Source: Rhodothermales bacterium
GTDB lineage: Bacteria > Bacteroidota > Rhodothermia > Rhodothermales > JANQRZ01
DNA: 64,000 nucleotides
Reading direction: 5' to 3'
NCBI GenBank assembly: GCA_039944855.1
Contig: JBDUXZ010000033.1
Span: forward strand, 1-64,000
Of the stretch, positions 32,303 through 59,166 are shown in pieces. The position numbers and the translations under genes were made by a program. The notes below the pieces were generated by a model, which did not search any database, had not been told where the DNA came from, and saw nothing but the letters and a program-made list of their open reading frames with translations. The number at the start of each line of letters is the position of its first letter. The stretch's first letter is position 1.

Positions 32303-35300
32303 ATGCGACTCCTCGCGCTCGCCGCGCTTCTCCTCGTCCCCCACGCCGCCGAAGCGCAGGGCTTCCGCACGTTCAACGACCGCAACCACCCTGAAATCGA
32401 CTGGCAGGTCGCCGAGACCGAGCACTTCGAGATCGTCTACCCCGAGCGGCTCGCCGGCATCGAGGCCGAGGCGGCAGCCGTCGCCGAGGAGACGTACGCG
32501 GCGCTCGCCGAGAACCTCGGCGTGACGTTCGACAAGCCGATCCGGGTCTATCTCTCGGACGAGGACGAGATCGCGAATGGCGTCGCGTTCAGCGTCGGCG
32601 CGGGATTCACGAACATCTGGGTCCACGTCAACGAGACGGCGGACATCTGGACGGGCGACGTGAAGTGGCTGCGGAAGGTGATGGCGCACGAGATCGCCCA
32701 CATCTTCCACTACCGCGCGATCCGCTCGCCCATTGGCCTGCTCCAGAACATCTTCGCGAACCCGATCCCGAGCTTCTGGGCCGAGGGCTTCGCGCAGTAC
32801 CAAACGGAGGAGTGGGACGCGCAGCGCGGCGACCGCTGGCTCCGCACGGCCGTCTTCGAGGATCGGCTGAGCTACGCCGACGGCACCTCGTCGTGGAACG
32901 GCCGGCTGAAGTACGCCGTCGGGAACGCGCAGGTGCGCTACCTCGCCGACACCTACGGCGACACGACGCTCGTGAACATTCTGGAGCACCGGAAGCGGCT
33001 GCTGCCCGGCGTCCGCGTCCACGACTTTTACAGCGCCTTCGAGGCTGAGGTCGGCACGCCGTACCGGGAGTTTTACGACGAGTGGCGCAAGCACGTCAAC
33101 GTCTACTACAACACGCTCGCCGGGCAGATGGAGCGGACGGACTCGCTCGGGACGGCGCTGAAGATCCCCGGCGCGTACCTCTACGACGTGCGCTACAGCC
33201 CGGACACGTCGAAGGTGGCGGCGCTCGTGCTCTCGTCCGTGGCGCGGCCCGTCCGCCGCCTCGCCGTGATCGAGGGCCTCGCGGACACGACGCAGGCGCG
33301 GAAGGTCCGCGTGCTCGCCGAGGGCTCGATTGAGGCACCGTTCGCGTGGAGCCGCGACGGCGAGCGGATCGCGTACGCCCGGACCGTGCGCGGGCGCTAC
33401 GGCTCGCTCGTGAACGACCTCTTCGTCGTGGACGTGGCGACGGGCTACACCGAGCGGCTCACGTACGACCGCCGCGCCTCGTCGCCGGCGTTCGGACCGG
33501 ACGGGAGCGTCGCGTTCATCGGCAGCGCGGGCGGGACGGCGAACGTGTTCGTGCGCGCCGCCGACGGGGCCGAAACCCGCCTCACCGACTTCACCGGCGA
33601 CGTGCAGCTCACGACGCTCCGCGCGAGCCCCGACGGCCGCCGCCTCGCCTTCGCCCGCTTCGGCCCGACCGGCGAGCGCGACCTCGTCGTGTTTGACTTC
33701 GACACGGGCGATCTCATCTCCGTCTCCGCCGGCGACGCCGACGACCGGATTCCGGTGTGGAGCTACGACGGCACGCGCCTCGCCTTCACCTCGCTCCGCG
33801 ACGACGCGCCGAACGTGTTCGTGGTGGACCTCGCCCCCCCGCTTCTCTCGCATCGGGCTCCGGGACACGTCCCTGTGCCCTCAGGCGTCGAGAAGCTGTC
33901 CCCCTTCAAGGAGGACAGCCCGGTGAAGCCGGGAGCAAGCCTTGCGAGCGACCGCGAACCGGGCGGGGGGTCCGAACGCCGCGTCACCCACCTCTTCGGC
34001 GGGGCGACGGCCCACGACTGGCTCCCGCCCGACTCGCTCCACCCCGACGGCCGGATCGTGCTCGTGACGAGCGAGAGTAAGCGGCGCGAGCAGGCCTTCG
34101 CCGTCGACGCCCGCCGGACCGTCGAGGTCGAAGCTCCGGCGACGGCACCCGATGCGTACGCGACGTGGACCGCGCACCGGCCGCCGCGTACGATCCCGAA
34201 CGCCATCGCCCCGGACGCCGCCCTCGTCCGGGATCGCTACAGCTACAACTCGTGGGCGAACATCACGCACGCCGGCTCCTTCGCCCTCCCCTACGCCGAG
34301 CTCGACGGGAGCGATTACGGCGTGTTCGGGACGACGCTCTGGCTCGAACCGCTCGGCAAGCACGTCTTCGTCGGGCTCGTCTCCGTGTCGATCCCGAAGT
34401 TCGCGGAGCAAACGCTCGGCTTCCTCTCGTACACCAACAACCAGTTCCTGCCGTCGCTCACGCTCAACGCGTACCGCTACCCGAGCCCGGCGCGGTGGTA
34501 CGGCGCGGGACTCCTCGTCGAAGACCTCGTCGGCGGCGACCTCACGGCGACGCTCCCGCTCGACCTCACGACGGCCCCGTTCACGAGCACGTCCGTCGAC
34601 GCCCGCGTCCGCTACGCCTACGCCGACCCGTTCGACGACAGCGCGTTCGACGACATCGAGACGACAGGGCTCGTGCGGCCGGAGGCGGGGTATCGGTCGG
34701 AGCTGCGGCTCGGGTTTACGGCGAAGCGGCAGCGACCGTACCGCTACAACGACGTCTACCCGCTCGACGGCATCGGGCTGCGCGCGCGCGTGACGGCGGG
34801 CCTGCCCGTGCTCGGCAGCGACGCCGAGTTTGTGCGCCCGGACCTCGCCGCGTACTGGGTGTCGCCGCAGCTCGGGATCGGCCGGTTCTACGCTTACGGC
34901 CGCGCGCAGGCGCGATTCGGCGACGCGCTCGCGCAGGACTTCGTCGGCCTCTCGCGCTACGACGACATCGACCTCCAGCTCCCGTTCGTCGAGCCGATCA
35001 CGCTCTCGGAGTCAGAGCGCGTGCGCGGCTACCGGCGCTACGCCGTCGGCGACCGGCTCGTCTTCGGGACGCTCGAATACCGCCTCCCACCCGTGTTCGA
35101 CCTCGGGACGCGGCTGCTCGGCTTCCTCGAACTCGGCCGCGTCTCGCCTGCCTTCTTCGTCGATGCCGCCGCCGTATGGACCGGAAATGACATCGACGAC
35201 GCGGTTCGGCGCACGGGCGTCGGGTTCGAGCTGAAGAACCGGGTGAGCCTCGGCGGCTTCCCGCTCGTCCATGCGCTCGGCGTCGCGCAGGAGTGGGACG

Positions 35301-49849: not shown

Positions 49850-51055
49850 CTACCCCACCTCGGCGTAGCCCTCCGGCACGGGCACGAACGTCGGCGCGCC
49901 CGTCGGGATCGTGGCGATGCCGGCGGGGAGGTCGACGCTCGGCAGCGTGAGCGCGGGCGTCTCGCCATCGAGCGGGTTCGGTTCGGCCCAGAGGTCGCCG
50001 CGCGTGCTCTCCATCACGACGTGGTCGCCGGCGCGGCCGAGGACGTAGTCGCGCGTGAGCGGGACTTTGCCGAACGGGGTGTCGAGGACGTACGTCGGCA
50101 CGGCGAAGCCGGAGGTGTGGCCGCGCAGCCCGCGCATGATCGCCATGCCCGTCTCGATGGGCGTGCGGAACGCCGCCGTCCCGCCGATGAGCTGGGCTTG
50201 GTAGATGTAGTACGGCCGCACCCGCATCGCCACAAGCCCCTCGACGAGCGCCTTCATCGTCGCCACGTCGTCGTTGATCCCGCGCATGAGCACGGTCTGG
50301 TTGCCGACGGGCACGCCCGCCTCGGCGAGCTTCGCGCATGCGGCGGCGGCCTCGGGCGTCAGCTCTTTCGGGTGGTTGAAGTGGGTGTTGAGCCACACCG
50401 GATGGTGCGCCCGCAGGAGGTCGCAGAGATCGTCGGTGATGCGGTACGGCAGCGTCACCGGCAGCCGCGAGCCGATGCGGATGACCTCGACGTGGGGGAT
50501 CGCACGGAGCCGGCCGAGCAGCCAGCCGAGATTCGCCTTGTTGAAGACGAGCGGGTCGCCGCCGGTGAGGAGCACGTCGCGGATTGCCGGGTGCGCCGCG
50601 ATGTAGTCGATCGCCTCGCCGAGCTCGTCCTTCCGCATCATGAAATCGGCGTCGCCGACCATCCGCTTGCGGAGGCAGTAGCGGCAGTAGATCGCGCACT
50701 CGGCCGTGACGCAGAAGGCGACGCGGTCGGGGTAGTTGTGGATGAGGTTCTTCACCGGCGAGTGGCCGACCTCGTCGAGCGGGTCCACGACGCCGACGAT
50801 GTCGGGCGCGAGCTCGCTCATCCGGGGGACGACCTGCCGCCGCACGGGGCAGTCCGGCCCGCCCATCAGGCTCGCGTAGTACGGCGTGATGTTCCAGCGG
50901 AAGATGTCCGCCGTCGCCTCGATGGCCGCCAGTTCGTCGGCCGTCGGCTCGATGTAATCGCGGAGCGCGGCCTCGTCGTGGACGCGGTGGCGCATCTGCC
51001 AGCGCCAATCGGCCCACTGCGGATTTGGAATTTCGGATTTGGGGTGGGCTTCCAT
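49850..51055 (-). CDS. kamA: KamA-family radical SAM protein (lysine 2,3-aminomutase-like)
   Basis: A 401-residue radical SAM enzyme with a PLP-type KamA fold. The Fe-S motif CxxxCxxC is C120-C124-C127 (AECAIYCRYCLRKR). TGGDPL, GSRLPVTLPYRIT, HFNHPKELTPE and the late SGFAVPTYVLDTP block (PLP-binding region) match lysine or glutamate 2,3-aminomutases. Product (beta-lysine, beta-glutamate, or EF-P modification) is not settled. The first ten residues (PKSEIPNPQ) are read from a repeat-like phrase, but PQWADWRWQ directly after is the conserved start of the family, so the ATG at 51055 was kept. Confidence 0.87.
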   Translation of the reverse strand: MEAHPKSEIPNPQWADWRWQMRHRVHDEAALRDYIEPTADELAAIEATADIFRWNITPYYASLMGGPDCPVRRQVVPRMSELAPDIVGVVDPLDEVGHSPVKNLIHNYPDRVAFCVTAECAIYCRYCLRKRMVGDADFMMRKDELGEAIDYIAAHPAIRDVLLTGGDPLVFNKANLGWLLGRLRAIPHVEVIRIGSRLPVTLPYRITDDLCDLLRAHHPVWLNTHFNHPKELTPEAAAACAKLAEAGVPVGNQTVLMRGINDDVATMKALVEGLVAMRVRPYYIYQAQLIGGTAAFRTPIETGMAIMRGLRGHTSGFAVPTYVLDTPFGKVPLTRDYVLGRAGDHVVMESTRGDLWAEPNPLDGETPALTLPSVDLPAGIATIPTGAPTFVPVPEGYAEVG

Positions 51056-51068
51056 CGGTGCCTGGAAT

Positions 51069-51093
51069 CGTAGGGGCGAACGGCGTTCGCCCG
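51069..51093. repeat. GTAGGGGCG-family hairpin repeat
   Basis: CGTAGGGGCGAACGGCGTTCGCCCG has stem GGGCGAAC/GTTCGCCC with a 3-nt loop. It lies between kamA and the upstream small gene. Related to 46725-46752 and 62610-62675. Confidence 0.6.
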
Positions 51094-51114
51094 CTTCGGG
51101 ATGGGCGCGCTGCC

Positions 51115-51357
51115 TCACGGGCGGCCGTCCATGTTGGGGTAGCGGCGGAATGCCTTCATCACGGCGGGGTCGCGCGTCGTCTCGAACGCCTCGCCGCACT
51201 TGCCGCAGCGGAACGTGATCTCGCGGGGCTGCGCGGAGATGCCGTTGAAGAAGTTGAGCCAGCCGCCGACGCCGTAGCGCATGTCGGGGCGGGCGAAGTG
51301 GTGGTAGCGGTCGTGCCCGCACGAGCAGGTGGGGCGCGGGGAATCGGGCGTGCTCAT
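51115..51357 (-). CDS. small zinc-ribbon-like protein
   Basis: An 80-residue protein with CSCGH near the N-terminus and FRCGKCGEAFET in the second half, so four Cys in two pairs could bind one zinc. Between them is RYGVGGWLNFFNGI. No family recognised. It is 59 bp upstream of kamA on the same strand with a hairpin repeat between, so co-transcription is possible. Confidence 0.65.
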   Translation of the reverse strand: MSTPDSPRPTCSCGHDRYHHFARPDMRYGVGGWLNFFNGISAQPREITFRCGKCGEAFETTRDPAVMKAFRRYPNMDGRP

Positions 51358-51652
51358 GGGTCCACCCTACGCCGCGACCGCAGAGCGGATTCCGAACGCC
51401 GTGTGGATTCAGCGCCCGCCCGGGATGCGCATGCGGAACCGTTCCGCCACGCCTCGCCCGCACCCGACCCCGCCGACGGGGACGCCTCGGGATGGCGTAG
51501 GACATGCGCGCCGAGCCACCTATCTTGGCCGGCGGCGGTTAGCACGGCGCCCGCCACCGTTCATGTTATGTAGGGACGATTTCAGTTTAGCCCCGTGTGG
51601 TTATATGGTTTGCATCCTCCCCAATTCGACTGATCAGAGGTAGTCCTGTCTT

Positions 51653-52618
51653 ATGGATCTCCTAGAAGACATCAGGAGCAAGCTCCCCGCAATACAGTCC
51701 CACCCTTCTGAGGAGGGGATCAAGGCCGCCCTGCGCCATGTGGAGGTAGCAGAGCGCTGGTTGCTGCGGGGACGTGACGAAAAAGACGAGGACCTATTTA
51801 ATGATGTCATATACCGGACAAACCAGGCGTTCGAAGGAATGCTAAAAGAGGCCTTCACCGTCTTGGCGAGCCAAGACGGATCTAGTTTGTCAACTTACAA
51901 AATCGAAAACCATCTTGTTAGTAGCAACATTTTATCAGATAGAGTGATGGCCCTTTTTACCAACTATAGACAAGAGTGGCGCAACAAATCAACACATGAT
52001 CACAAGCTATTCTTTAGTGAACAGGAAGCACTTCTTGCAATTGTGAGCGTGTCTGCATTTGCCACTATTTTAATAGACCAGATAATCGAATTCACCAGTG
52101 CCCAAGCAGAAAAAGAAAAAGTTGAGAACAGGAAAGCCGAGCTGACCGCTGAGATCGATAGCGCCAAGAAGTCCTCTTTCCGGGAAGAGGTGATCTCCCT
52201 CCTTATGCTATTTGGAAACGAATTATCTAATGAAATTGACGGTCAAACTGAAATGAGAGAAGTGGAATTAATAGGAAGAATGGTTGGTTTCATCCAGACT
52301 GTAGACCCATCTATTAACATAATGAGGGAGCCTATTTTGTCGGATGGAAGATCAAGAGCTGATTTAATACTAAGCAGAGGTAAGACCAATATTGTTGTGG
52401 AAGTAAAACGAGGTTCTCCCAGATGGTTTAAGAGCTTTCAAGAGAGAGGGCTGTCCCAGGTCATGAACTACATGGACATGTCGGCCACCAGGCACGGGAT
52501 TCTATATATATCCCCTTACTTGAAAGGTCAAGACATGCGTCACGATGAGGTTTTTTCAGCGAAAGGGCCACAAAAAACCACAATTGATATGTTGGTACCT
52601 GTGAAGCCGGACGCATAA
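51653..52618 (+). CDS. orphan HEPN-like + PD-(D/E)XK nuclease protein, AT-rich
   Basis: A 321-residue protein on DNA of strikingly lower GC than its neighbours, with A/T-ending codons, so probably recently acquired. The N-terminal helical part (about 20-148) ends in EWRNKSTHDHK, where R110-N-K-S-T-H115 fits the HEPN RNase motif (R-X4-6-H) and is followed by a hydrophobic helix, as in HEPN/DUF4145-type folds. A charged coiled segment (about 150-175) leads to a C-terminal PD-(D/E)XK core: RADLIL (D237), then NIVVEVKRG (E250, K252), then GLSQVMNYM. No partner gene is on the same strand. A stand-alone defence nuclease is a reasonable guess; no function is proven. Confidence 0.75.
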   Translation: MDLLEDIRSKLPAIQSHPSEEGIKAALRHVEVAERWLLRGRDEKDEDLFNDVIYRTNQAFEGMLKEAFTVLASQDGSSLSTYKIENHLVSSNILSDRVMALFTNYRQEWRNKSTHDHKLFFSEQEALLAIVSVSAFATILIDQIIEFTSAQAEKEKVENRKAELTAEIDSAKKSSFREEVISLLMLFGNELSNEIDGQTEMREVELIGRMVGFIQTVDPSINIMREPILSDGRSRADLILSRGKTNIVVEVKRGSPRWFKSFQERGLSQVMNYMDMSATRHGILYISPYLKGQDMRHDEVFSAKGPQKTTIDMLVPVKPDA

Positions 52619-52730
52619 CCAGCGTTCGCAGGCCCACCGGCCACTTCACCGCCTTTGCTGCCTTACCGACAGCGGCTACTTTGCTCGTTTCACCGTATCG
52701 CCGCGTGCGACGGGTAAAGTGCCATCCATT

Positions 52731-52835
52731 CTACCCCACGCCGAGGCGGCGCAGCCCGCGCGCGAGGAGGTCGGCGAGGAGGTCGGGGTAGGGCCGGTTC
52801 ATCAGCTCGGCGATGATGGCGAACGTGCCGTCGGG
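52731..52835 (-). pseudogene. detached 3' end of the ddl-like gene (105 bp)
   Basis: This matches 53535-53639, the last 34 codons and stop of the ligase gene, over the full 105 bp with five differences. All five are synonymous in the ligase frame (Arg, Gly, Arg, Ala and Leu codons). Similarity begins exactly at the stop codon and ends where the inserted sequence starts at 52836. It appears to be the original gene end, cut off when an 804-bp segment carrying a replacement end was inserted. Confidence 0.85.
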
Positions 52836-52858
52836 TACTACTCCGTACCTTCAGCGGG

Positions 52859-53188
52859 ATGAAGATCCCGAATGCTGCCGCCGCCTTCGTTCCCCCGGAC
52901 AAGCTGACCGGCTATCTCCTCGCGCTTGCACACCCTGTCGGCGGCCCGAAGGCACGGTTCTTCCGAGCGCATGGGTTCGACGAGACCAACACAGCGGAGC
53001 TAGAAGGGGGCTTGCTCGCTATCGTTCGCCGCGCGGACGCCGAAGCCAGCGAGAGCCCGCACGGCACGAAGTACGTCGCAGACGGCCGGCTCCCAACCCC
53101 GAGCGGTCGTCGCGTGCGGGTGCGGACGGTCTGGGTCGTGGACCCAACGGACCCTCGCCCGCGTCTCATTACCGCCTACCCTGCGTGA
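52859..53188 (+). CDS. DUF6883-like protein
   Basis: A 109-residue protein: KIPNAAAAFVPPDKLTGYLL, HPVGGPKARFFRAHGFDE, KYVADGRLPTPSGRRVRVRTVW and a PRLITAYPA end. This pattern is that of the DUF6883 family as I remember it, small proteins often found as toxin-domain or toxin-antitoxin-like partners. No catalytic residue is known to me. It is the first gene of the 804-bp insertion at the ligase gene end and lies 17 bp before a DUF4926-like gene. Confidence 0.72.
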   Translation: MKIPNAAAAFVPPDKLTGYLLALAHPVGGPKARFFRAHGFDETNTAELEGGLLAIVRRADAEASESPHGTKYVADGRLPTPSGRRVRVRTVWVVDPTDPRPRLITAYPA

Positions 53189-53205
53189 CCTACCGAGAAC
53201 ATCTC

Positions 53206-53433
53206 ATGATCCGAGAACATGATACCGTAGTGCTAAGGCGCGACCTCCCGACTCTGGGCCTGAAGCGAGGGGATGTCGGAGCGGTGGTTCACGTCTACGG
53301 CGATGGGGCGGCTGTGGAGGTGGAGTTCGTCGCTGGAGCCGGGACGACGGTTGGGGTGGAAACGCTGGAACTGGAGGATGTACGTCCGCTCGGCCGGGAC
53401 GAGATTCTACACGCACGCCCCATAGCTGCTTGA
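53206..53433 (+). CDS. DUF4926-like protein
   Basis: A 75-residue all-beta protein: REHDTVVLRRDLPTLGLKRG, DVGAVVHVYGDGAAVEVEFV, TLELEDVRPL. It matches the DUF4926 family pattern (D-x-V-V-L, L-x-x-G-D-x-G-x-V-V, E-V-E-F), which is often encoded next to DUF6883. The two may form a toxin-antitoxin- or immunity-like pair. The ATG at 53206 gives the normal family start. Confidence 0.78.
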   Translation: MIREHDTVVLRRDLPTLGLKRGDVGAVVHVYGDGAAVEVEFVAGAGTTVGVETLELEDVRPLGRDEILHARPIAA

Positions 53434-53534
53434 CCCTTCGCTGTACGCCGCCGGGCTTCCCCGCCTTACACGTCGGGTCCACGTTGCTATCACCGGAGGC
53501 CGGGTCGCCCAGCGAGAGGGAGCGGCCATGCGCT

Positions 53535-54536
53535 CTACCCCACGCCGAGACGGCGCAGTCCACGCGCGAGGAGGTCAGCGAGGAGGTCGGGGTAGGGCCG
53601 GTTCATCAACTCGGCGATGATGGCGAACGTGCCGTCGGGCGCGAACGTCGGGAGCGGGTTGATCTCCAGAAACCACGGCTTCCCGCGCTCGTCCACGCGG
53701 AAGTCCACGCGCGCGAAGTCCCGGCACTCCAGCTTGGCGTAGATGCGGAGCGCGAGGTCGCACAGCCGCGCCTCCAGCACGCGGTCGAGCGCGCCGTGGA
53801 TGACGTAGTCGAACGGGGCGGCGGGGTCCTCGTGGCGGTCGAGCGCGTGGAGGCCGATGCCGGAGTTCCGCTCCGTCGCCCGCTGCAGCACGGGCAGCGC
53901 CTCGGCCGGGTCGTTCCCGACGACGGCCACGGTAAACTCGCCCCCGACGACGAAGCGCTCCACGAGCACGTCCTGCCCGTAGAGCCGCGTCTGCCGCTCG
54001 ACCTCGCGGCGCACGCCGTCCGGCGTCTCGGCCCGGCTCGACGGCGCGATCCCCTTCGCGGTCCCCTCGTAGCGCGGCTTCACGAAGAGTGGAAACGGCG
54101 GGAGATCCGTCTCGTCCACCGCGTCGGCCGAGGCCAGCACGCGCCAGTCCGGCGTGGCAATTCCGGCGGCGCGGGCGAGGTCCTTCGTCCACGCTTTGTC
54201 GAGCGAGAGCGACAGCGTGAGCGCGTCCGACCCGAGGCACGGCACGCCCGCGAGTTCGAGGAGCGTCGGCGCGTGGCCTTCGCGGTTGCGGCTCCCGTAG
54301 CTCTCGGCGATGTTCACCGCCGCGTCGAGGCCGAGGGAAGGCTCCTCCTGCATCCAGGCCAGGAGCGCCTGCGCCGAGCCGATGCGGACGGGCTCGTGCC
54401 CGAGCGCGCGGACCGCCGCTTCGAGCACGGCGACGGTCTCCTCCGGCTCGAACTCGGCGTCCCAGTCCGGCGGGGCGTCGGGCGGCGGCGGCGTGTCGCC
54501 GAAGCGGTCGTAGACGAGGCCGATGCGCAGGCTCAC
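53535..54536 (-). CDS. D-alanine-D-alanine ligase-like ATP-grasp protein
   Basis: A 333-residue ATP-grasp ligase. It has the N-terminal RIGLVYDRFG, AAVNIAESYGSRNREGHAP (serine-loop region), PLFVKPRYEGTAKGI (ATP-binding Lys), VLVERFVVGGEFTVAVVG and the metal-binding block ARVDFRVDERGKPWFLEINP. It could join D-Ala-D-Ala for peptidoglycan or be a related amino-acid ligase; the wide sequence distance from standard Ddl leaves this open. GTG start overlapping the upstream gene's TGA by four bases. Its final 105 bp is a replaced end, with the older copy at 52731-52835. Confidence 0.83.
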   Translation of the reverse strand: MSLRIGLVYDRFGDTPPPPDAPPDWDAEFEPEETVAVLEAAVRALGHEPVRIGSAQALLAWMQEEPSLGLDAAVNIAESYGSRNREGHAPTLLELAGVPCLGSDALTLSLSLDKAWTKDLARAAGIATPDWRVLASADAVDETDLPPFPLFVKPRYEGTAKGIAPSSRAETPDGVRREVERQTRLYGQDVLVERFVVGGEFTVAVVGNDPAEALPVLQRATERNSGIGLHALDRHEDPAAPFDYVIHGALDRVLEARLCDLALRIYAKLECRDFARVDFRVDERGKPWFLEINPLPTFAPDGTFAIIAELMNRPYPDLLADLLARGLRRLGVG

Positions 54537-55366
54537 GAGTGCGTGCGGCTACGCCCGGGCCTAGACGACTCCGCATCGGCCTCCGGCAGATCGTCGAGGC
54601 CGAGGCGCGGTGCGCGTTCCGGTTCGGCCTCCGTCGGCACTGCGGACCGCTCGGCAGCAGGCGCGGCGTCCCGGGCGATGAGGTCGATCCGGTCGAGGGC
54701 GTGCTCGAAGCGCTCGGCCTGCCGGTTGGCGTAGGTCCCGAAGCCGAAGCGGCTGCCGCCGAACATCAGCAGAGCGAACGCCGCGAACATCGCCGGAAGG
54801 AGCATCACGCCGGGCTCGAAATCACCGACGGCGAAGAGCACGCCGAACAGCAGCGCGACGAGGGCGAACGTCGCCGACGCCGCCGTGAGCCCGAGCGCCG
54901 AAGACCGCATCGACTGCTCGATCGTGACGTGGGCGCCGCCGTCCTCGGGCGTGACGCTCACGCGGACCGGCATCCGGTTCTCCTCCGTCGTCGTCGCCCA
55001 CTCGCGCACGCGCCCGACGCGGCCCGCAACGCCCGGCTGCTTGAACGTCTTCCGCAGGTCCGTCACCATCTGCTCCCACGCCTCATCGGTGACGGGCGCC
55101 GCCACCGCGCGCGCCCGTCGCACCTCGACCGGCATGCCCAGCATCTTCCCCGCCGGGCGCGTCGGCCCAGCGGCGGCGAGTTCCACCGCGGCCTCGGCGA
55201 TGTGCTCCGGCGCGATCCCCGTCTCCCGGCCGATGCGCTGCAACTCGTCGAGCGTCAGCCCGCCTTCGCTCGCGGCCTCGGCGCGGCGGGCCTGCTCCTG
55301 TCGCTCGGCCGCGCGCTCGAAGAGGGCGTGGATCTCGTGCTCGGTGTAGCGACGGCCGGTGCTCAT
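54533..55366 (-). CDS. uncharacterised two-span membrane protein, paralogue 3
   Basis: A 277-residue protein. Residues 1-75 form a helical N-terminal module (YTEHEIHALFERAAERQEQA, LTLDELQRIGRETGIAPEHI), 85-155 a mixed domain (DEAWEQMVTDLRKTF), then two hydrophobic helices (about 165-185 and 190-210) and a charged tail ending RLGLDDLPE...RSRTHS. It belongs with the next two genes to one family. No function known. It overlaps ddl-like, so the four genes form one leftward operon. Confidence 0.75.
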   Translation of the reverse strand: MSTGRRYTEHEIHALFERAAERQEQARRAEAASEGGLTLDELQRIGRETGIAPEHIAEAAVELAAAGPTRPAGKMLGMPVEVRRARAVAAPVTDEAWEQMVTDLRKTFKQPGVAGRVGRVREWATTTEENRMPVRVSVTPEDGGAHVTIEQSMRSSALGLTAASATFALVALLFGVLFAVGDFEPGVMLLPAMFAAFALLMFGGSRFGFGTYANRQAERFEHALDRIDLIARDAAPAAERSAVPTEAEPERAPRLGLDDLPEADAESSRPGRSRTHS

Positions 55367-55418
55367 AGCGGGGATGACGGGAGGAGCGAGGAAGGTACGG
55401 CGGCGGACGGCCCGTGCC

Positions 55419-56306
55419 TCACGACCGCGTGCGGCTCCGCTCCGTCGCCCCGGCATCGCCCTCCTCTTCCGACAGCGCGTCCAGGTCGATGCGCGGCGTG
55501 GCGGCCGGCGCGGATTCGCTCGGCGCGGACGCTTCGGCCTGCGGCGTGGCCTCGGCGGCGCGCGGAGCGACGGCCTCGAACGTCTGCTCGATGTCGGCGG
55601 CGAGCTCCGTCAGGCCGCGCTGCTTCTTCTCGCGCCAGCGCCGGTCGAGCCGGGTGATGATGGGCCCGGCGACGAGCGTCGTCACGAGTGCGATCGCCAC
55701 GAGTGCGACGAGATAGACCCAGAAGCTGTCGAATGCATCGGCGATGGGGATCGCCCCGATCACACCCGCGATGAGTCCGAGGAAGGCGCCGTACATCATC
55801 CCCTCGGCCTTCGGCGCGGCGTGGCCGACGCGCTGCGAGAGGATCACCCGCGTCCGCCCCTCCCGCTCGCTCGCCGAGATGCGCGTCTCGACGCCGAGTT
55901 GGCTCATGTGCACCCACTCGTGCGCCCGCCCGACGCGCTCGACGCGGCCCTCGCCGCCGCGCCCGTACCACATCCCCATGTCCACGCCGAACCGGCTGCG
56001 GAGCAGGGCCACCGTGTCCTCCCATGCCTCGTCCGAGAACGGCCGGTCGACCCAGTGCTCGACGATGACGTGCGTGGCCGTCTGGGTCTCGGCCTGCACC
56101 GCCGCCCGCCGTCCTGTCTGCACCTCGTCGGCGGCGGCGCGGAGGTGCTTCGGGTCGAGCCCGACTTCGGCGCCGAGGGCTTCGAGGTCGGCGAGCGTGA
56201 GGCCGTGGTCGCGCGCCTCCTGCCGCTCGGCCTCCTCCTCCTGCCGCGCCGAGGCCCGGCGGATGATGGCCTTGACTTCTTCCTCTGAAAAGACGCGGTC
56301 GAGCAT
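55419..56306 (-). CDS. uncharacterised two-span membrane protein, paralogue 2
   Basis: A 295-residue protein with the same plan: FSEEEVKAIIRRASARQEEE, LTLADLEALGAEVGLDPKHL, DEAWEDTVALLRSRFG, two spans (about 176-196 and 205-225) and a tail with RIDLDALSEEEG...RSRTRS. The N-terminal module resembles the 'E-E-V-x-x-I-x-R-R-A' helices common in membrane or regulatory proteins of Gemmatimonadota and Bacteroidota. The middle domain differs most between copies, so ligands may differ. Confidence 0.75.
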   Translation of the reverse strand: MLDRVFSEEEVKAIIRRASARQEEEAERQEARDHGLTLADLEALGAEVGLDPKHLRAAADEVQTGRRAAVQAETQTATHVIVEHWVDRPFSDEAWEDTVALLRSRFGVDMGMWYGRGGEGRVERVGRAHEWVHMSQLGVETRISASEREGRTRVILSQRVGHAAPKAEGMMYGAFLGLIAGVIGAIPIADAFDSFWVYLVALVAIALVTTLVAGPIITRLDRRWREKKQRGLTELAADIEQTFEAVAPRAAEATPQAEASAPSESAPAATPRIDLDALSEEEGDAGATERSRTRS

Positions 56307-56333: not shown

Positions 56334-57194
56334 TTACGAGCGGGTGCGCGTGCGATCGGGCGCGGCCTGCTCTTCTTCGATGTCCGGCAGCGCGTCGAGA
56401 TCGAGGCGCCGCTCCGTGTCGGGCTGCGCCGTCGCGGGAGCCTCCTTCTCGGCCGGACGGGCCGCGCGGGCAGGCTCCGGCGTCTGGTCCCGAGCGAGGA
56501 GTTCGAGCCGGTCGAGCACGGCGTCGAACTTCTCCTCCTGCTTCGGCCGCCAGTGCTTCAGCCAGCCCCACGTGCCGCCGGAGAAGCCGAGCGCCATCGT
56601 GCCCATCATCACGGCCGCGATCAGCACGTCGGGCTCGGCCTCGATGAGGGCGAGGGCGACGAACAAGACGGTCATCACCGCGCCGATCGCCGCCGCAATC
56701 GTGAACCCGCGTGTCGTCTCGCGGACGGACTGCCGGAGCGTCGCCCGCGTCCGCCCGTCGCCGAGCGGTTCGAGCGCGAGGCGCATCGCAGAGCCGCTGT
56801 TGTTCGTGACGCGCTTGACGGCGGTCCACTCGCGCATCTGCCCGATCTGCCCGACGCTTCCGTCCTCGTCGAACGTCCGGCGGACCTCGGCGACCATCCG
56901 CGCCCATACCTCGTCGGAGACCGCGCCGGGAAACACCCGCGTCCGCTCGACCTCGGTGGGCGCGCCGAGGAACGTGTGCGCCGGCTTGGCAGGCGCGGCG
57001 ACGGCCAGCTCCGCCGCCGCGGCGGCGATGTGCGCCGGGTCGATACCCGACGCGCCGCCGATCTCCTGCAGCTCGCGGAGGGTGAGGTGCCCGTGGCTCG
57101 CAGCCTCGGCGCGGCTCGCCTCCTCCTGCCGCTTCGCGGCACGCTCGAAGATGGCGCGGAGTTCGGCTTCGGAGTAGCGGCGCTCGTCGTTCAT
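56334..57194 (-). CDS. uncharacterised two-span membrane protein, paralogue 1
   Basis: A 286-residue protein: YSEAELRAIFERAAKRQEEA, LTLRELQEIGGASGIDPAHI, DEVWARMVAEVRRTFDEDG, two spans (about 165-185 and 190-212), then WLKHWRPKQEEKFDAVLDRL and the tail RLDLDALPDIEEE...RTRTRS. First gene of the operon. The ATG at 57194 (MNDERRYSEAE) is chosen. In-frame extension upstream runs into the 57252 palindrome. Confidence 0.75.
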   Translation of the reverse strand: MNDERRYSEAELRAIFERAAKRQEEASRAEAASHGHLTLRELQEIGGASGIDPAHIAAAAAELAVAAPAKPAHTFLGAPTEVERTRVFPGAVSDEVWARMVAEVRRTFDEDGSVGQIGQMREWTAVKRVTNNSGSAMRLALEPLGDGRTRATLRQSVRETTRGFTIAAAIGAVMTVLFVALALIEAEPDVLIAAVMMGTMALGFSGGTWGWLKHWRPKQEEKFDAVLDRLELLARDQTPEPARAARPAEKEAPATAQPDTERRLDLDALPDIEEEQAAPDRTRTRS

Positions 57195-57251
57195 GGGTCG
57201 TCGGAGATGGAGAGGAGAATATAGCCGCCGGACCGAACGGGGCGCCATCCC

Positions 57252-57279
57252 GTAGAGACGCAGCATGCTGCGTCTCTAC
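57252..57279. repeat. 28-bp perfect palindrome (GTAGAGACGCAGCA family)
   Basis: GTAGAGACGCAGCA followed by its exact complement TGCTGCGTCTCTAC, in the gap between two divergent genes. A degenerate copy lies at 36272-36297. It is not coding, though open frames on both strands begin inside it. Confidence 0.75.
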
Positions 57280-57396: not shown

Positions 57397-59022
57397 ATGC
57401 TCCCGCCCGACTCCGCCGACGACTTCGAAGGCCTGCTCCGCGTCCGCCCGCTCACCGAGGACGACTACGACGCCGTCGTCCGGCTCCAGCAAGCCGGCTT
57501 CCCCGGCATGCCGCCGTGGACGCCGCGCGAGTTCGCCAGCCACCTCGCCGTGTTTCCCGAGGGCCAGCTCGGCGTCGAGTACCAAGGCCAGATCGTCGGC
57601 TCGTCGAGCAGCCTCGTCGTGGACTTCGACGAGTACGGCGAGCGGCACGACTGGGACGCGATCACGGCGAACGGCCTCATCACGAACCACGACGGCGCGG
57701 GCGACACGCTCTACGGCATCGAGGTCGTCGTGGACCCCACCTACCGCGGGCTCCGCATCGGGCGGCGGCTCTACGAGGCGCGGAAGGCGCTCGCGCGGCA
57801 GATGAACCTCCGCCGGATCATCGTCGGCGGCCGGCTGCCGGGCTACGCCGCGCACGCCGGCGCGATGCGCGTGCCCGAGTACGTCGAGGCCGTGATCCGG
57901 GCCGACCTCCGCGACCCCGTCCTCACGTTCCAGCTCGCCAACGGCTTCGTCGTCAAACGGATCGTGCGGGACTACCTCCCGGAAGACGACGCCTCGTACG
58001 GTCACGCCGTGATCCTCGAGTGGGTGAACCTCCACTACTCCCCCCACCCGAAGCGGCGCAACCGCGCCACCTTCCCCGTCCGCGTCTGCACGGTCCAGTA
58101 TCAGATGCGCGCCGTCGCCGACTTCGACGACTTCGCGCGGCAGGTCGAGTTCTTCGTCGACGTCGCGGCCGGGTACGAGGCCGACTTCGTGCTCTTCCCG
58201 GAGATGTTCACGCTCCAGCTCCTCTCGTTCCTCCCGCCGCAGTCGCCGGGCGCGGGCGTGCGGCAGCTCACGCAGTTCACGCCGGAGCTGGTCGAGATGG
58301 GGCAGCGCCTCGCGCTGAAGTACAACGTCAACATCGTCGCGGGCAGCCACTACACCGAGCGCGAGGACGGGCTCTACAACGTCGCCACCCTCTTCCACCG
58401 CGACGGGCGGACGGACGAGCAGGCGAAGCTCCACATCACCCCGAGCGAGCAGCGGTTCTGGGGCACGCGCGCGGGCCGCGCCATCCACGTCTTCGACACC
58501 GACCGGGGCAAAGTCGCCATCTCGATCTGCTACGATACCGAGTTCCCCGAGGTCGCCCGGATCGCGACGCAGAAGGGGGCGCAGATCCTGTTCGTCCCGT
58601 TCTGCACGGACAACCGGCAGGGCCACCTCCGCGTGATGCGCTGCGCCCAGGCCCGCGCGATCGAGAACCAGCTCTACGTCGTGACGAGCGGCTGCGTGGG
58701 CAACATCCCGTCGGTGGAGAACATGGACGTGCACTACGCGCAGTCCGGCATCTTCACCCCGAGCGACTTCCCGTTCCCGCCCGACGGCGTGGCCGGGCTC
58801 TGCGAGCCGAACGTCGAGACCGTCGTCGTGGCGGACCTCGACCTCGAAACGCTCCGCCGCAACCGCGTCGACGGAACGGTGCGCCCGTGGCGAGACCGCC
58901 GGCTCGACCTCTACGAAGTCGTCGAGAAAGAGCCGCCGCCCACGCCCGCCCCGCCGCGCGTCGTCGATGCGGTCTCCTTGGGCTTCGAGACCACGCCGCC
59001 GAGGGAACCCACGCACGGGTGA
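57397..59022 (+). CDS. GNAT acetyltransferase - nitrilase fusion
   Basis: A 541-residue two-domain protein. Residues about 15-200 form a GNAT acyltransferase (VVDPTYRGLRIGRRLYEAR is the acetyl-CoA loop). Residues about 230-490 form a carbon-nitrogen hydrolase with catalytic triad E269 (LFPEMF), K344 (AKLHITPSE) and C378 (ISICYDTEFPE). This GNAT-nitrilase fusion is known in several phyla; its substrate is not established to my knowledge. The ATG at 57397 is chosen over a frame opening inside the 57252 palindrome. Confidence 0.9.
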   Translation: MLPPDSADDFEGLLRVRPLTEDDYDAVVRLQQAGFPGMPPWTPREFASHLAVFPEGQLGVEYQGQIVGSSSSLVVDFDEYGERHDWDAITANGLITNHDGAGDTLYGIEVVVDPTYRGLRIGRRLYEARKALARQMNLRRIIVGGRLPGYAAHAGAMRVPEYVEAVIRADLRDPVLTFQLANGFVVKRIVRDYLPEDDASYGHAVILEWVNLHYSPHPKRRNRATFPVRVCTVQYQMRAVADFDDFARQVEFFVDVAAGYEADFVLFPEMFTLQLLSFLPPQSPGAGVRQLTQFTPELVEMGQRLALKYNVNIVAGSHYTEREDGLYNVATLFHRDGRTDEQAKLHITPSEQRFWGTRAGRAIHVFDTDRGKVAISICYDTEFPEVARIATQKGAQILFVPFCTDNRQGHLRVMRCAQARAIENQLYVVTSGCVGNIPSVENMDVHYAQSGIFTPSDFPFPPDGVAGLCEPNVETVVVADLDLETLRRNRVDGTVRPWRDRRLDLYEVVEKEPPPTPAPPRVVDAVSLGFETTPPREPTHG

Positions 59023-59025
59023 GCG

Positions 59026-59166
59026 GAGCGGACCCCCCGCCCGTTTCGCGGTCGCTCCGACTCTGCGAGTCTGCGCTCCCAGCTTTAACGGGCTGTCCCC
59101 CTTGAAGGGGGACAGCTTTTTCGTTCCTGAGCGGGAGCGGTGAACGGGAAAGCGGGGGGTCCGCTC
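59026..59166. repeat. 141-bp intergenic element with 15-bp terminal inverted repeats
   Basis: GAGCGGACCCCCCGC (59026-59040) and GCGGGGGGTCCGCTC (59152-59166) are perfect terminal inverted repeats. Inside is a 12+1+12 hairpin, GCTGTCCCCCTT-G-AAGGGGGACAGC (59092-59116), followed by T5. It fills the entire gap between two convergent genes, even overlapping the stop codon of the second, and can serve as a two-way terminator. A related 81-bp copy is inside the gene at 32303-35371. Confidence 0.8.

What the first reader, a model, noticed from the sequence alone, without database searches (positions are those of the whole stretch)
52731..53639. 804-bp insertion at the 3' end of a ligase gene leaves two synonymous copies of the gene end
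Seen: 52731-52835 and 53535-53639 are 105-bp copies of the last 34 codons plus stop of the ddl-like gene; all five differences are synonymous; similarity starts exactly at the stop codon, and removing 52836-53639 rejoins the gene perfectly. Known: integrative elements such as e14 in icd integrate in a gene end and bring a replacement end with silent changes. Inference: the ligase gene 3' end is an attachment site, and the inserted piece is a tiny non-autonomous or decayed element carrying two cargo genes.
Basis: partly seen in the sequence, partly recalled or inferred. Interest (0 to 1): 0.82.

Follow-up and report, generated by a model that had tools for sequence, protein, structure and literature searches.

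The report
Toxin-like gene pair inserted, gene end duplicated
A tiny two-gene unit that looks like a toxin and its antidote was slipped in behind a host gene together with a spare copy of that gene's end, and the same kind of scar recurs behind different genes in many bacteria, which suggests a way for the smallest mobile genes to move without carrying a recombinase.

Summary
Two 105-bp copies of the ddl-like gene end lie 804 bp apart; their 5 differences are all synonymous. Same-family relatives have an empty site. The copy away from the gene (A) is the resident end: its downstream bases match the empty sites. The copy on the working gene (B) came with the insert.

The cargo is DUF6883 plus DUF4926. 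AlphaFold/Foldseek place DUF6883 on the BECR RNase fold (closest: CdiA-CT Kp342, PDB 6cp9, TM 0.75), with a matching Lys-Tyr-His-Arg-Thr residue series. The pair is a predicted toxin-antitoxin module.

Across many phyla, 28 of 108 such modules have flanking direct repeats, against 10 of 932 control positions. Some repeats are ends of ddl, enoyl-CoA hydratase, arginase, inositol phosphatase or alaS (5' end); others are tRNA, attC-like or dispersed. ParE, VapC and HicA modules and solitary GIY-YIG genes behave alike; glyoxalase and DUF1801 genes do not.

An integrase attachment site is not supported: no recombinase in the insert, variable junctions, 3' and 5' ends both used. Best fit: foreign DNA sharing only the gene end with the host integrated by homologous single crossover, as shown experimentally for lacZ in E. 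coli.

The parts
53535..54536 (-). ddl-like ATP-grasp ligase gene (333 aa), the target gene, intact
   Evidence: Pfam PF07478 E 9e-26; orthologues in most of the relatives
53535..53639 (-). copy B: last 34 codons + stop, attached to the working gene; incoming (replacement) end
   Evidence: all 5 differences synonymous, B states differ from G001/G002 at most sites; sequence after its stop does not resemble the empty sites
52731..52835 (-). copy A: orphan resident gene end left behind, non-coding
   Evidence: its downstream AATGGATGGCACTTTACC aligns with the ddl-zr spacer of G001 (AATCCCGAGGGACTTTGCC)
52859..53188 (+). DUF6883 gene, 109 aa, predicted BECR-fold RNase-type toxin
   Evidence: PF21814 E 3e-26; AF2 pLDDT 97.7; Foldseek 6cp9 E 3e-5, TM up to 0.75; K15, Y19, H25, R102, T105 conserved
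53206..53433 (+). DUF4926 gene, 75 aa, SH3/KOW-like barrel, predicted antitoxin/immunity protein
   Evidence: PF16277 E 3e-19; AF2 pLDDT 87; weak NusG/SH3-like matches; sometimes found without DUF6883
52836..52858 (.). 23-bp junction between orphan copy A and the DUF6883 start codon
   Evidence: sequence; similarly short (13-57 bp) in many other loci
53434..53534 (.). spacer between DUF4926 stop and ddl stop; homology to the nearest related module (G002) ends at the DUF4926 stop
51358..52730 (.). original ddl-zr spacer, split by a second, older-looking insertion
   Evidence: ddl-side half next to copy A, zr-side half (GCGGCGTAGGGTGGACCC) next to 51357
51653..52618 (+). ORF1, 321 aa, low G+C (0.45 against 0.70); possible PD-(D/E)XK-type protein
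   Evidence: GC; weak PF13366 E 0.08
51115..51357 (-). 80-aa cysteine-containing ORF (here 'zr') that directly follows ddl at empty sites
   Evidence: tblastn to G001, G002, G009
49850..51505 (-). KamA-family radical SAM gene (ORF as listed, start uncertain)
   Evidence: PF04055 and PF12544; TIGR00238 E 1e-99

Best explanation
The feature is the scar of a recombinase-free insertion anchored in a gene end. A DNA fragment from a related strain, carrying the 3' end of its own ddl-like gene followed by a DUF6883-DUF4926 toxin-antitoxin-like pair, entered the cell. Its only homology to the chromosome was the ddl end. It recombined there by homologous exchange, most simply after its ends were trimmed and joined to a circle, followed by a single crossover within the first 30 bp of the 105-bp repeat. 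The ddl gene stays intact because it receives the donor's end (copy B). The resident end (copy A) is left behind the cargo as an orphan. Shown: the structure, the empty site, which copy is resident, the silent differences, the recurrence at other genes and in other phyla, and the toxin-like fold prediction. Inferred: the donor, the circle or one-sided exchange, RecA dependence, and toxicity with neutralisation.
For: Empty sites in G001 and G002. Copy A keeps the resident downstream bases and B does not; 5/5 differences are synonymous, mostly with B differing from the states in relatives. With substitutions free in the orphan and only silent ones in the gene, 5/5 silent has probability about 0.43^5 = 0.015, and all five falling in the gene copy about 0.21^5 = 0.0004 (own calculation from the 0.276 synonymous fraction). 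Similarity ends within 1 bp of the stop in the ECH, arginase, MoCoBD, inositol phosphatase and SDR cases, as expected if donor and resident share only the coding sequence; in the window it fades within 10 bp. Recurrence: 28/108 modules have flanking repeats against 10/932 control positions (Fisher p 2e-21). Targets differ: ddl in G009 (99% identical copies), ECH/menB-like in Fodinibius roseus, arginase, IMPase, MoCoBD, alaS 5' end twice. The same ECH gene end is duplicated around different cargo in sister species G112, and not in nine other species. Experimental precedent: in E. coli, linear DNA with only lacZ-3'-end homology gave duplications of the lacZ end in 56 of 60 clones (109-950 bp in those sequenced), explained by trimming, recircularisation and single crossover (PMC3240628).
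Against: No donor strain carrying B plus the module was found. Pooled over ten gene-end pairs the silent excess is moderate (42 of 75), and part of it follows from selection on the working copy. Several flanking repeats are dispersed, tRNA or attC-like rather than gene ends, so more than one route is at work. G009's repeat stops about 10 codons before the gene's stop. The ddl site in G021 has a module and no duplication. No microhomology was seen at the junction (context).
Confidence: 0.6

Rival explanations
1. The ddl 3' end is an attachment site of a site-specific integrase. The 804-bp piece is a non-autonomous or decayed element (CIME-like) mobilised in trans that brings a replacement gene end, as e14 does in icd.
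For: Replacement end with silent changes, empty site, two cargo genes. The ddl site was hit at least twice by different module subfamilies. One related module sits between tRNA-Leu copies near a recombinase-like C-terminus (G040).
Against: No recombinase in the insert. Repeat start points vary between loci with no common core. Two alaS cases use the 5' end. The same cargo uses many unrelated genes. Two independent hits at one gene among about 45 modules in the class is not improbable.
Confidence: 0.15
2. True target duplication: an unknown process inserted the pair and copied about 100 bp of the resident gene. The copies then diverged, with the working copy under selection.
For: Duplication length fits the 'long and variable (about 100 bp) target duplications' described for restriction-modification genes (PMC3874152). 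G009 copies are 99% identical.
Against: In the window all changes appear to lie in the working copy and none in the free orphan. Similarity ends at the stop codon in most 3' cases. The 10 bp beyond the stop are far more diverged than the coding part.
Confidence: 0.17
3. The pair is a defence or regulatory unit, not a toxin-antitoxin module, and its placement is incidental.
For: Function untested; DUF4926 resembles SH3/KOW barrels only weakly.
Against: BECR-fold match with E 3e-5 and the ordered K-Y-H-R-T residues. DUF6883 as C-terminal part of a phage minor capsid protein. DUF4926 occurs alone, whereas DUF6883 is nearly always paired. No PADLOC family matched.
Confidence: 0.15
4. Metagenome assembly artefact joining two strains.
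For: The window lies in a 41-contig assembly and the copies differ by 5%.
Against: The same arrangement at the same gene occurs in the single-contig genome G009 and at another gene in the cultured Fodinibius roseus DSM 21986.
Confidence: 0.03

Closest known systems
Insertion with long target duplication of restriction-modification genes (Nobusato 2000, Furuta 2010; summarised in PMC3874152)
   Same: Small gene pair, no transposase, direct duplications of about 100 bp and variable length, target left intact
   Different: Cargo here is a toxin-antitoxin-like pair; repeats are often host gene ends that stop at the stop codon; here the gene-attached copy appears to be foreign
One-sided homologous integration / lacZ-end duplications in E. 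coli conjugation (PMC3240628) and HFIR
   Same: Homology only at a gene 3' end, non-homologous cargo, duplication of the gene end
   Different: Laboratory event with long homology; natural cases here have 32-230 bp copies; classical HFIR gives deletions
T6SS effector-immunity module displacement arrays in Vibrio cholerae (PMC5361080)
   Same: Toxin-immunity pairs added next to a conserved anchor, leaving orphan remnants
   Different: There the anchor is the toxin gene cluster itself; here unrelated housekeeping genes
e14 in icd and other gene-end-targeting integrative elements (from own knowledge)
   Same: Replacement gene end with silent changes
   Different: No integrase, no common crossover core, 5' ends used too
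CdiA-CT Kp342 (PDB 6cp9), a BECR-fold tRNA nuclease (PMC9086364)
   Same: Fold (TM up to 0.75) and order of the K, Y, H, R, T residues, including R-x-x-T near the end
   Different: 16-17% identity; DUF6883 is mostly a stand-alone intracellular protein; activity untested
WHO elements of yeasts at FBA1 (from memory)
   Same: Insert brings a replacement gene end and leaves fragments
   Different: WHO elements carry a homing nuclease; none here

Membership tests
Integrase-driven integrative element / CIME | recombinase gene in the element | tested here: not met
   insert fully occupied by DUF6883 and DUF4926
Integrase-driven integrative element / CIME | common crossover core and fixed boundary across insertions | tested here: not met
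   repeat starts from 32 to about 170 bp before the stop; alaS cases at the 5' end
Integrase-driven integrative element / CIME | empty site in relatives | tested here: met
   G001, G002
Integrase-driven integrative element / CIME | mobilisation in trans by an integrase elsewhere in the genome | not tested
Insertion with long target duplication | direct duplications of order 100 bp, variable length, around a small gene unit | tested here: met
Insertion with long target duplication | both copies derive from the resident target | tested here: not met
   polarity and silent changes point to B as foreign; moderate strength
Type II toxin-antitoxin module | two small adjacent co-directional genes | tested here: met
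   the pair recurs in most DUF6883 loci
Type II toxin-antitoxin module | toxin fold | tested here: met
   AF2 and Foldseek prediction
Type II toxin-antitoxin module | toxicity and neutralisation | not testable with these tools
   needs expression assay
BECR-fold tRNase | catalytic residues equivalent to K157, Y160, H170, R252, T255 of CdiA-CT Kp342 | tested here: inconclusive
   same order, and K15, Y19, H25, R102, T/S105 conserved in 41-45 of 46; no residue-level superposition available
Insertion sequence / transposon | transposase, terminal inverted repeats, short target duplication | tested here: not met
Integron cassette | attC site | tested here: not met
   the window repeat is ddl coding sequence; attC-like repeats seen only at other loci

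The most novel reading that the evidence does not exclude
The smallest mobile genes (toxin-antitoxin pairs, solitary GIY-YIG genes) spread as recombinase-free cassettes that use a piece of a conserved host gene end as their homology arm. They can leave by recombination between the two copies and re-enter the same gene in another strain, so orphan gene ends are a readable record of such transfers across bacteria.
Probability: 0.25. Interest if true: 0.78.

Novelty: new variant of a known kind. Interest (0 to 1): 0.56.

Why it matters
How toxin-antitoxin and other tiny gene units move between genomes without carrying any recombinase is an open question. Orphan gene ends next to such units give a sequence signature that can be counted, dated and tested. 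The work also gives a first structural prediction for DUF6883 (BECR-fold toxin) and DUF4926 (its partner); a full-text search for both names found only one paper, naming DUF4926 once.

Tried and rejected
Addiction-only explanation (repeats persist because loop-out kills the cell): at first favoured because ParE 7/27, PIN 5/25, HicA 5/27 and DUF6883 9/40 have repeats, against glyoxalase 0/29 and DUF1801 2/30. Weakened because solitary GIY-YIG genes, not known as addictive, show 11/30 and a beta-barrel-like cargo sits behind a duplicated gene end in G112. Site preference for ddl: the G000 module is a different subfamily from those of G009 and G021, but two independent hits among about 45 modules is not statistically strong. 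Integron cassette reading: rejected for the window. The first alignment for a collection scan was too diverse; a narrower one worked. PADLOC, PHROGs and NCBIfam gave nothing for the pair; phage records gave no match with a related DUF6883 protein. Rfam gave no match near the insert.

Full report
Observation. The two 105-bp copies at 52731-52835 and 53535-53639 are real, in direct orientation, 804 bp apart, with five differences that are all synonymous. They are the strongest repeat of the window (E 4e-43) and have no further full copy in the genome. Similarity runs 10 bp beyond the stop with three mismatches.

What is inserted. The piece carries DUF6883 (52859-53188, +) and DUF4926 (53206-53433, +), convergent with the ddl-like gene. 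DUF6883 has a confident AlphaFold model (pLDDT 97.7) whose closest solved structures are the toxin chains of PDB 6cp9, CdiA-CT of Klebsiella pneumoniae 342 (E 3e-5, TM up to 0.75; weaker RelE and HigB matches). That toxin is a BECR-fold tRNA nuclease with active-site residues K157, Y160, H170, R252, T255 (PMC9086364). DUF6883 conserves K15, Y19, H25, R102 and T/S105 in the same order in 41-45 of 46 sequences, and the window copy has all five. DUF4926 models as a small beta barrel. DUF4926 can occur alone, while DUF6883 nearly always has it next door. One DUF6883 is the C-terminal part of a phage minor capsid protein. The pair is therefore most likely a toxin-antitoxin or toxin-immunity unit; toxicity is not shown.

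Which copy is which. In same-family relatives G001 and G002 the ddl-like gene is followed after 34 nt by the 80-aa ORF and kamA. The bases after copy A (AATGGATGGCACTTTACC) match the ddl-side half of that spacer, and the bases before the 80-aa ORF match the other half. So A is the resident end, and ORF1 (51653-52618, G+C 0.45) is a second insertion into the same spacer. The bases after B match neither. At most of the informative sites A agrees with relatives and B differs. If B were a copy of A diverging in place, the orphan should have collected most changes, and it has none visible.

Recurrence. G009, in another family, has the ddl end duplicated (124 bp, 99%) around a module with a truncated DUF6883; G021 has a module behind ddl without duplication. 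A scan of species genomes gave 80 named loci in many phyla. Of 108 usable modules, 28 have direct repeats within 350 bp on both sides, against 10 of 932 control positions (p 2e-21). Identified repeats include the 3' ends of enoyl-CoA hydratase, arginase, a molybdopterin enzyme and inositol monophosphatase, and the 5' end of alaS in two Chloroflexota-type genomes. Others are tRNA-Leu, attC-like or dispersed repeats. In the clean 3' cases similarity ends within 1 bp of the stop codon.

Not one cargo only. ParE (7/27), VapC-type PIN (5/25) and HicA (5/27) modules of the class show the same rate as DUF6883 (9/40), one of them with an SDR gene end. Glyoxalase (0/29) and DUF1801 (2/30) do not. Solitary GIY-YIG genes show 11/30, with tRNA ends, terminators and one gene end. 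In Fodinibius, the enoyl-CoA hydratase end is duplicated around DUF6883-DUF4926 in F. roseus and around a different, beta-barrel-like gene in sister species G112; nine other species lack a second copy. So gene-end duplication is a general scar of small insertions, enriched around small mobile genes.

Mechanism. The pattern (variable start inside the gene, end at the stop codon, donor-type end on the working gene, resident end orphaned, no recombinase) is what one-sided homologous integration predicts. In E. coli, linear DNA with homology only to the lacZ 3' end gave partial lacZ-end duplications in 56 of 60 clones (109-950 bp in the 14 sequenced), attributed to trimming, recircularisation and single crossover (PMC3240628). 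Related ideas were proposed for T6SS effector-immunity arrays (PMC5361080). Restriction-modification genes are known to insert with long variable target duplications (PMC3874152). An integrase attachment site is possible but has no positive evidence here.

Verdict. The new points are the toxin-like assignment of DUF6883, the resident/incoming polarity, and the quantified recurrence across genes, cargo types and phyla.

Noticed in passing
window 51653-52618: Low-G+C ORF (0.45 in a 0.70 background) inserted into the old ddl-kamA spacer; weak PD-(D/E)XK similarity.
   Followed up: partly
window 54998-55354 and 56826-57182: 70% identical repeat between neighbouring, apparently paralogous ORFs (54533-55456, 55419-56306, 56334-57266).
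   Followed up: no
window 33893-33989 and 59017-59118: Inverted copies (81%) of a dispersed repeat of about 100 bp.
   Followed up: no
L118 5592-6230 (G002): The C-terminal half of DUF6883 is fused to an unrelated N-terminal domain, with a DUF4926 that is 91% identical to the window's; DNA similarity to the window ends at the DUF4926 stop.
   Followed up: partly
G119:C37:205203-206214: Three solitary GIY-YIG genes in tandem with an exact 398-bp period; similar pairs in G134, G164 and G190.
   Followed up: no
L124 1886-3794 (G087): Methyltransferase-like gene end present three times, separated first by DUF6883-DUF4926 and then by a GIY-YIG gene: a small accretion array.
   Followed up: partly
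L119 5372-8331 (G040): DUF6883-DUF4926 lies between tRNA-Leu copies, with a third copy and a tyrosine-recombinase-like C-terminus nearby.
   Followed up: no
L351 1939-3375 (Anoxybacillus plasmid NZ_CP015439.1): DUF6883 forms the C-terminus of a phage minor capsid protein, a polymorphic-toxin-like arrangement.
   Followed up: no
L173 and L224: In two Anaerolineae/Chloroflexi genomes the module sits upstream of alaS with the 5' end of alaS duplicated.
   Followed up: partly
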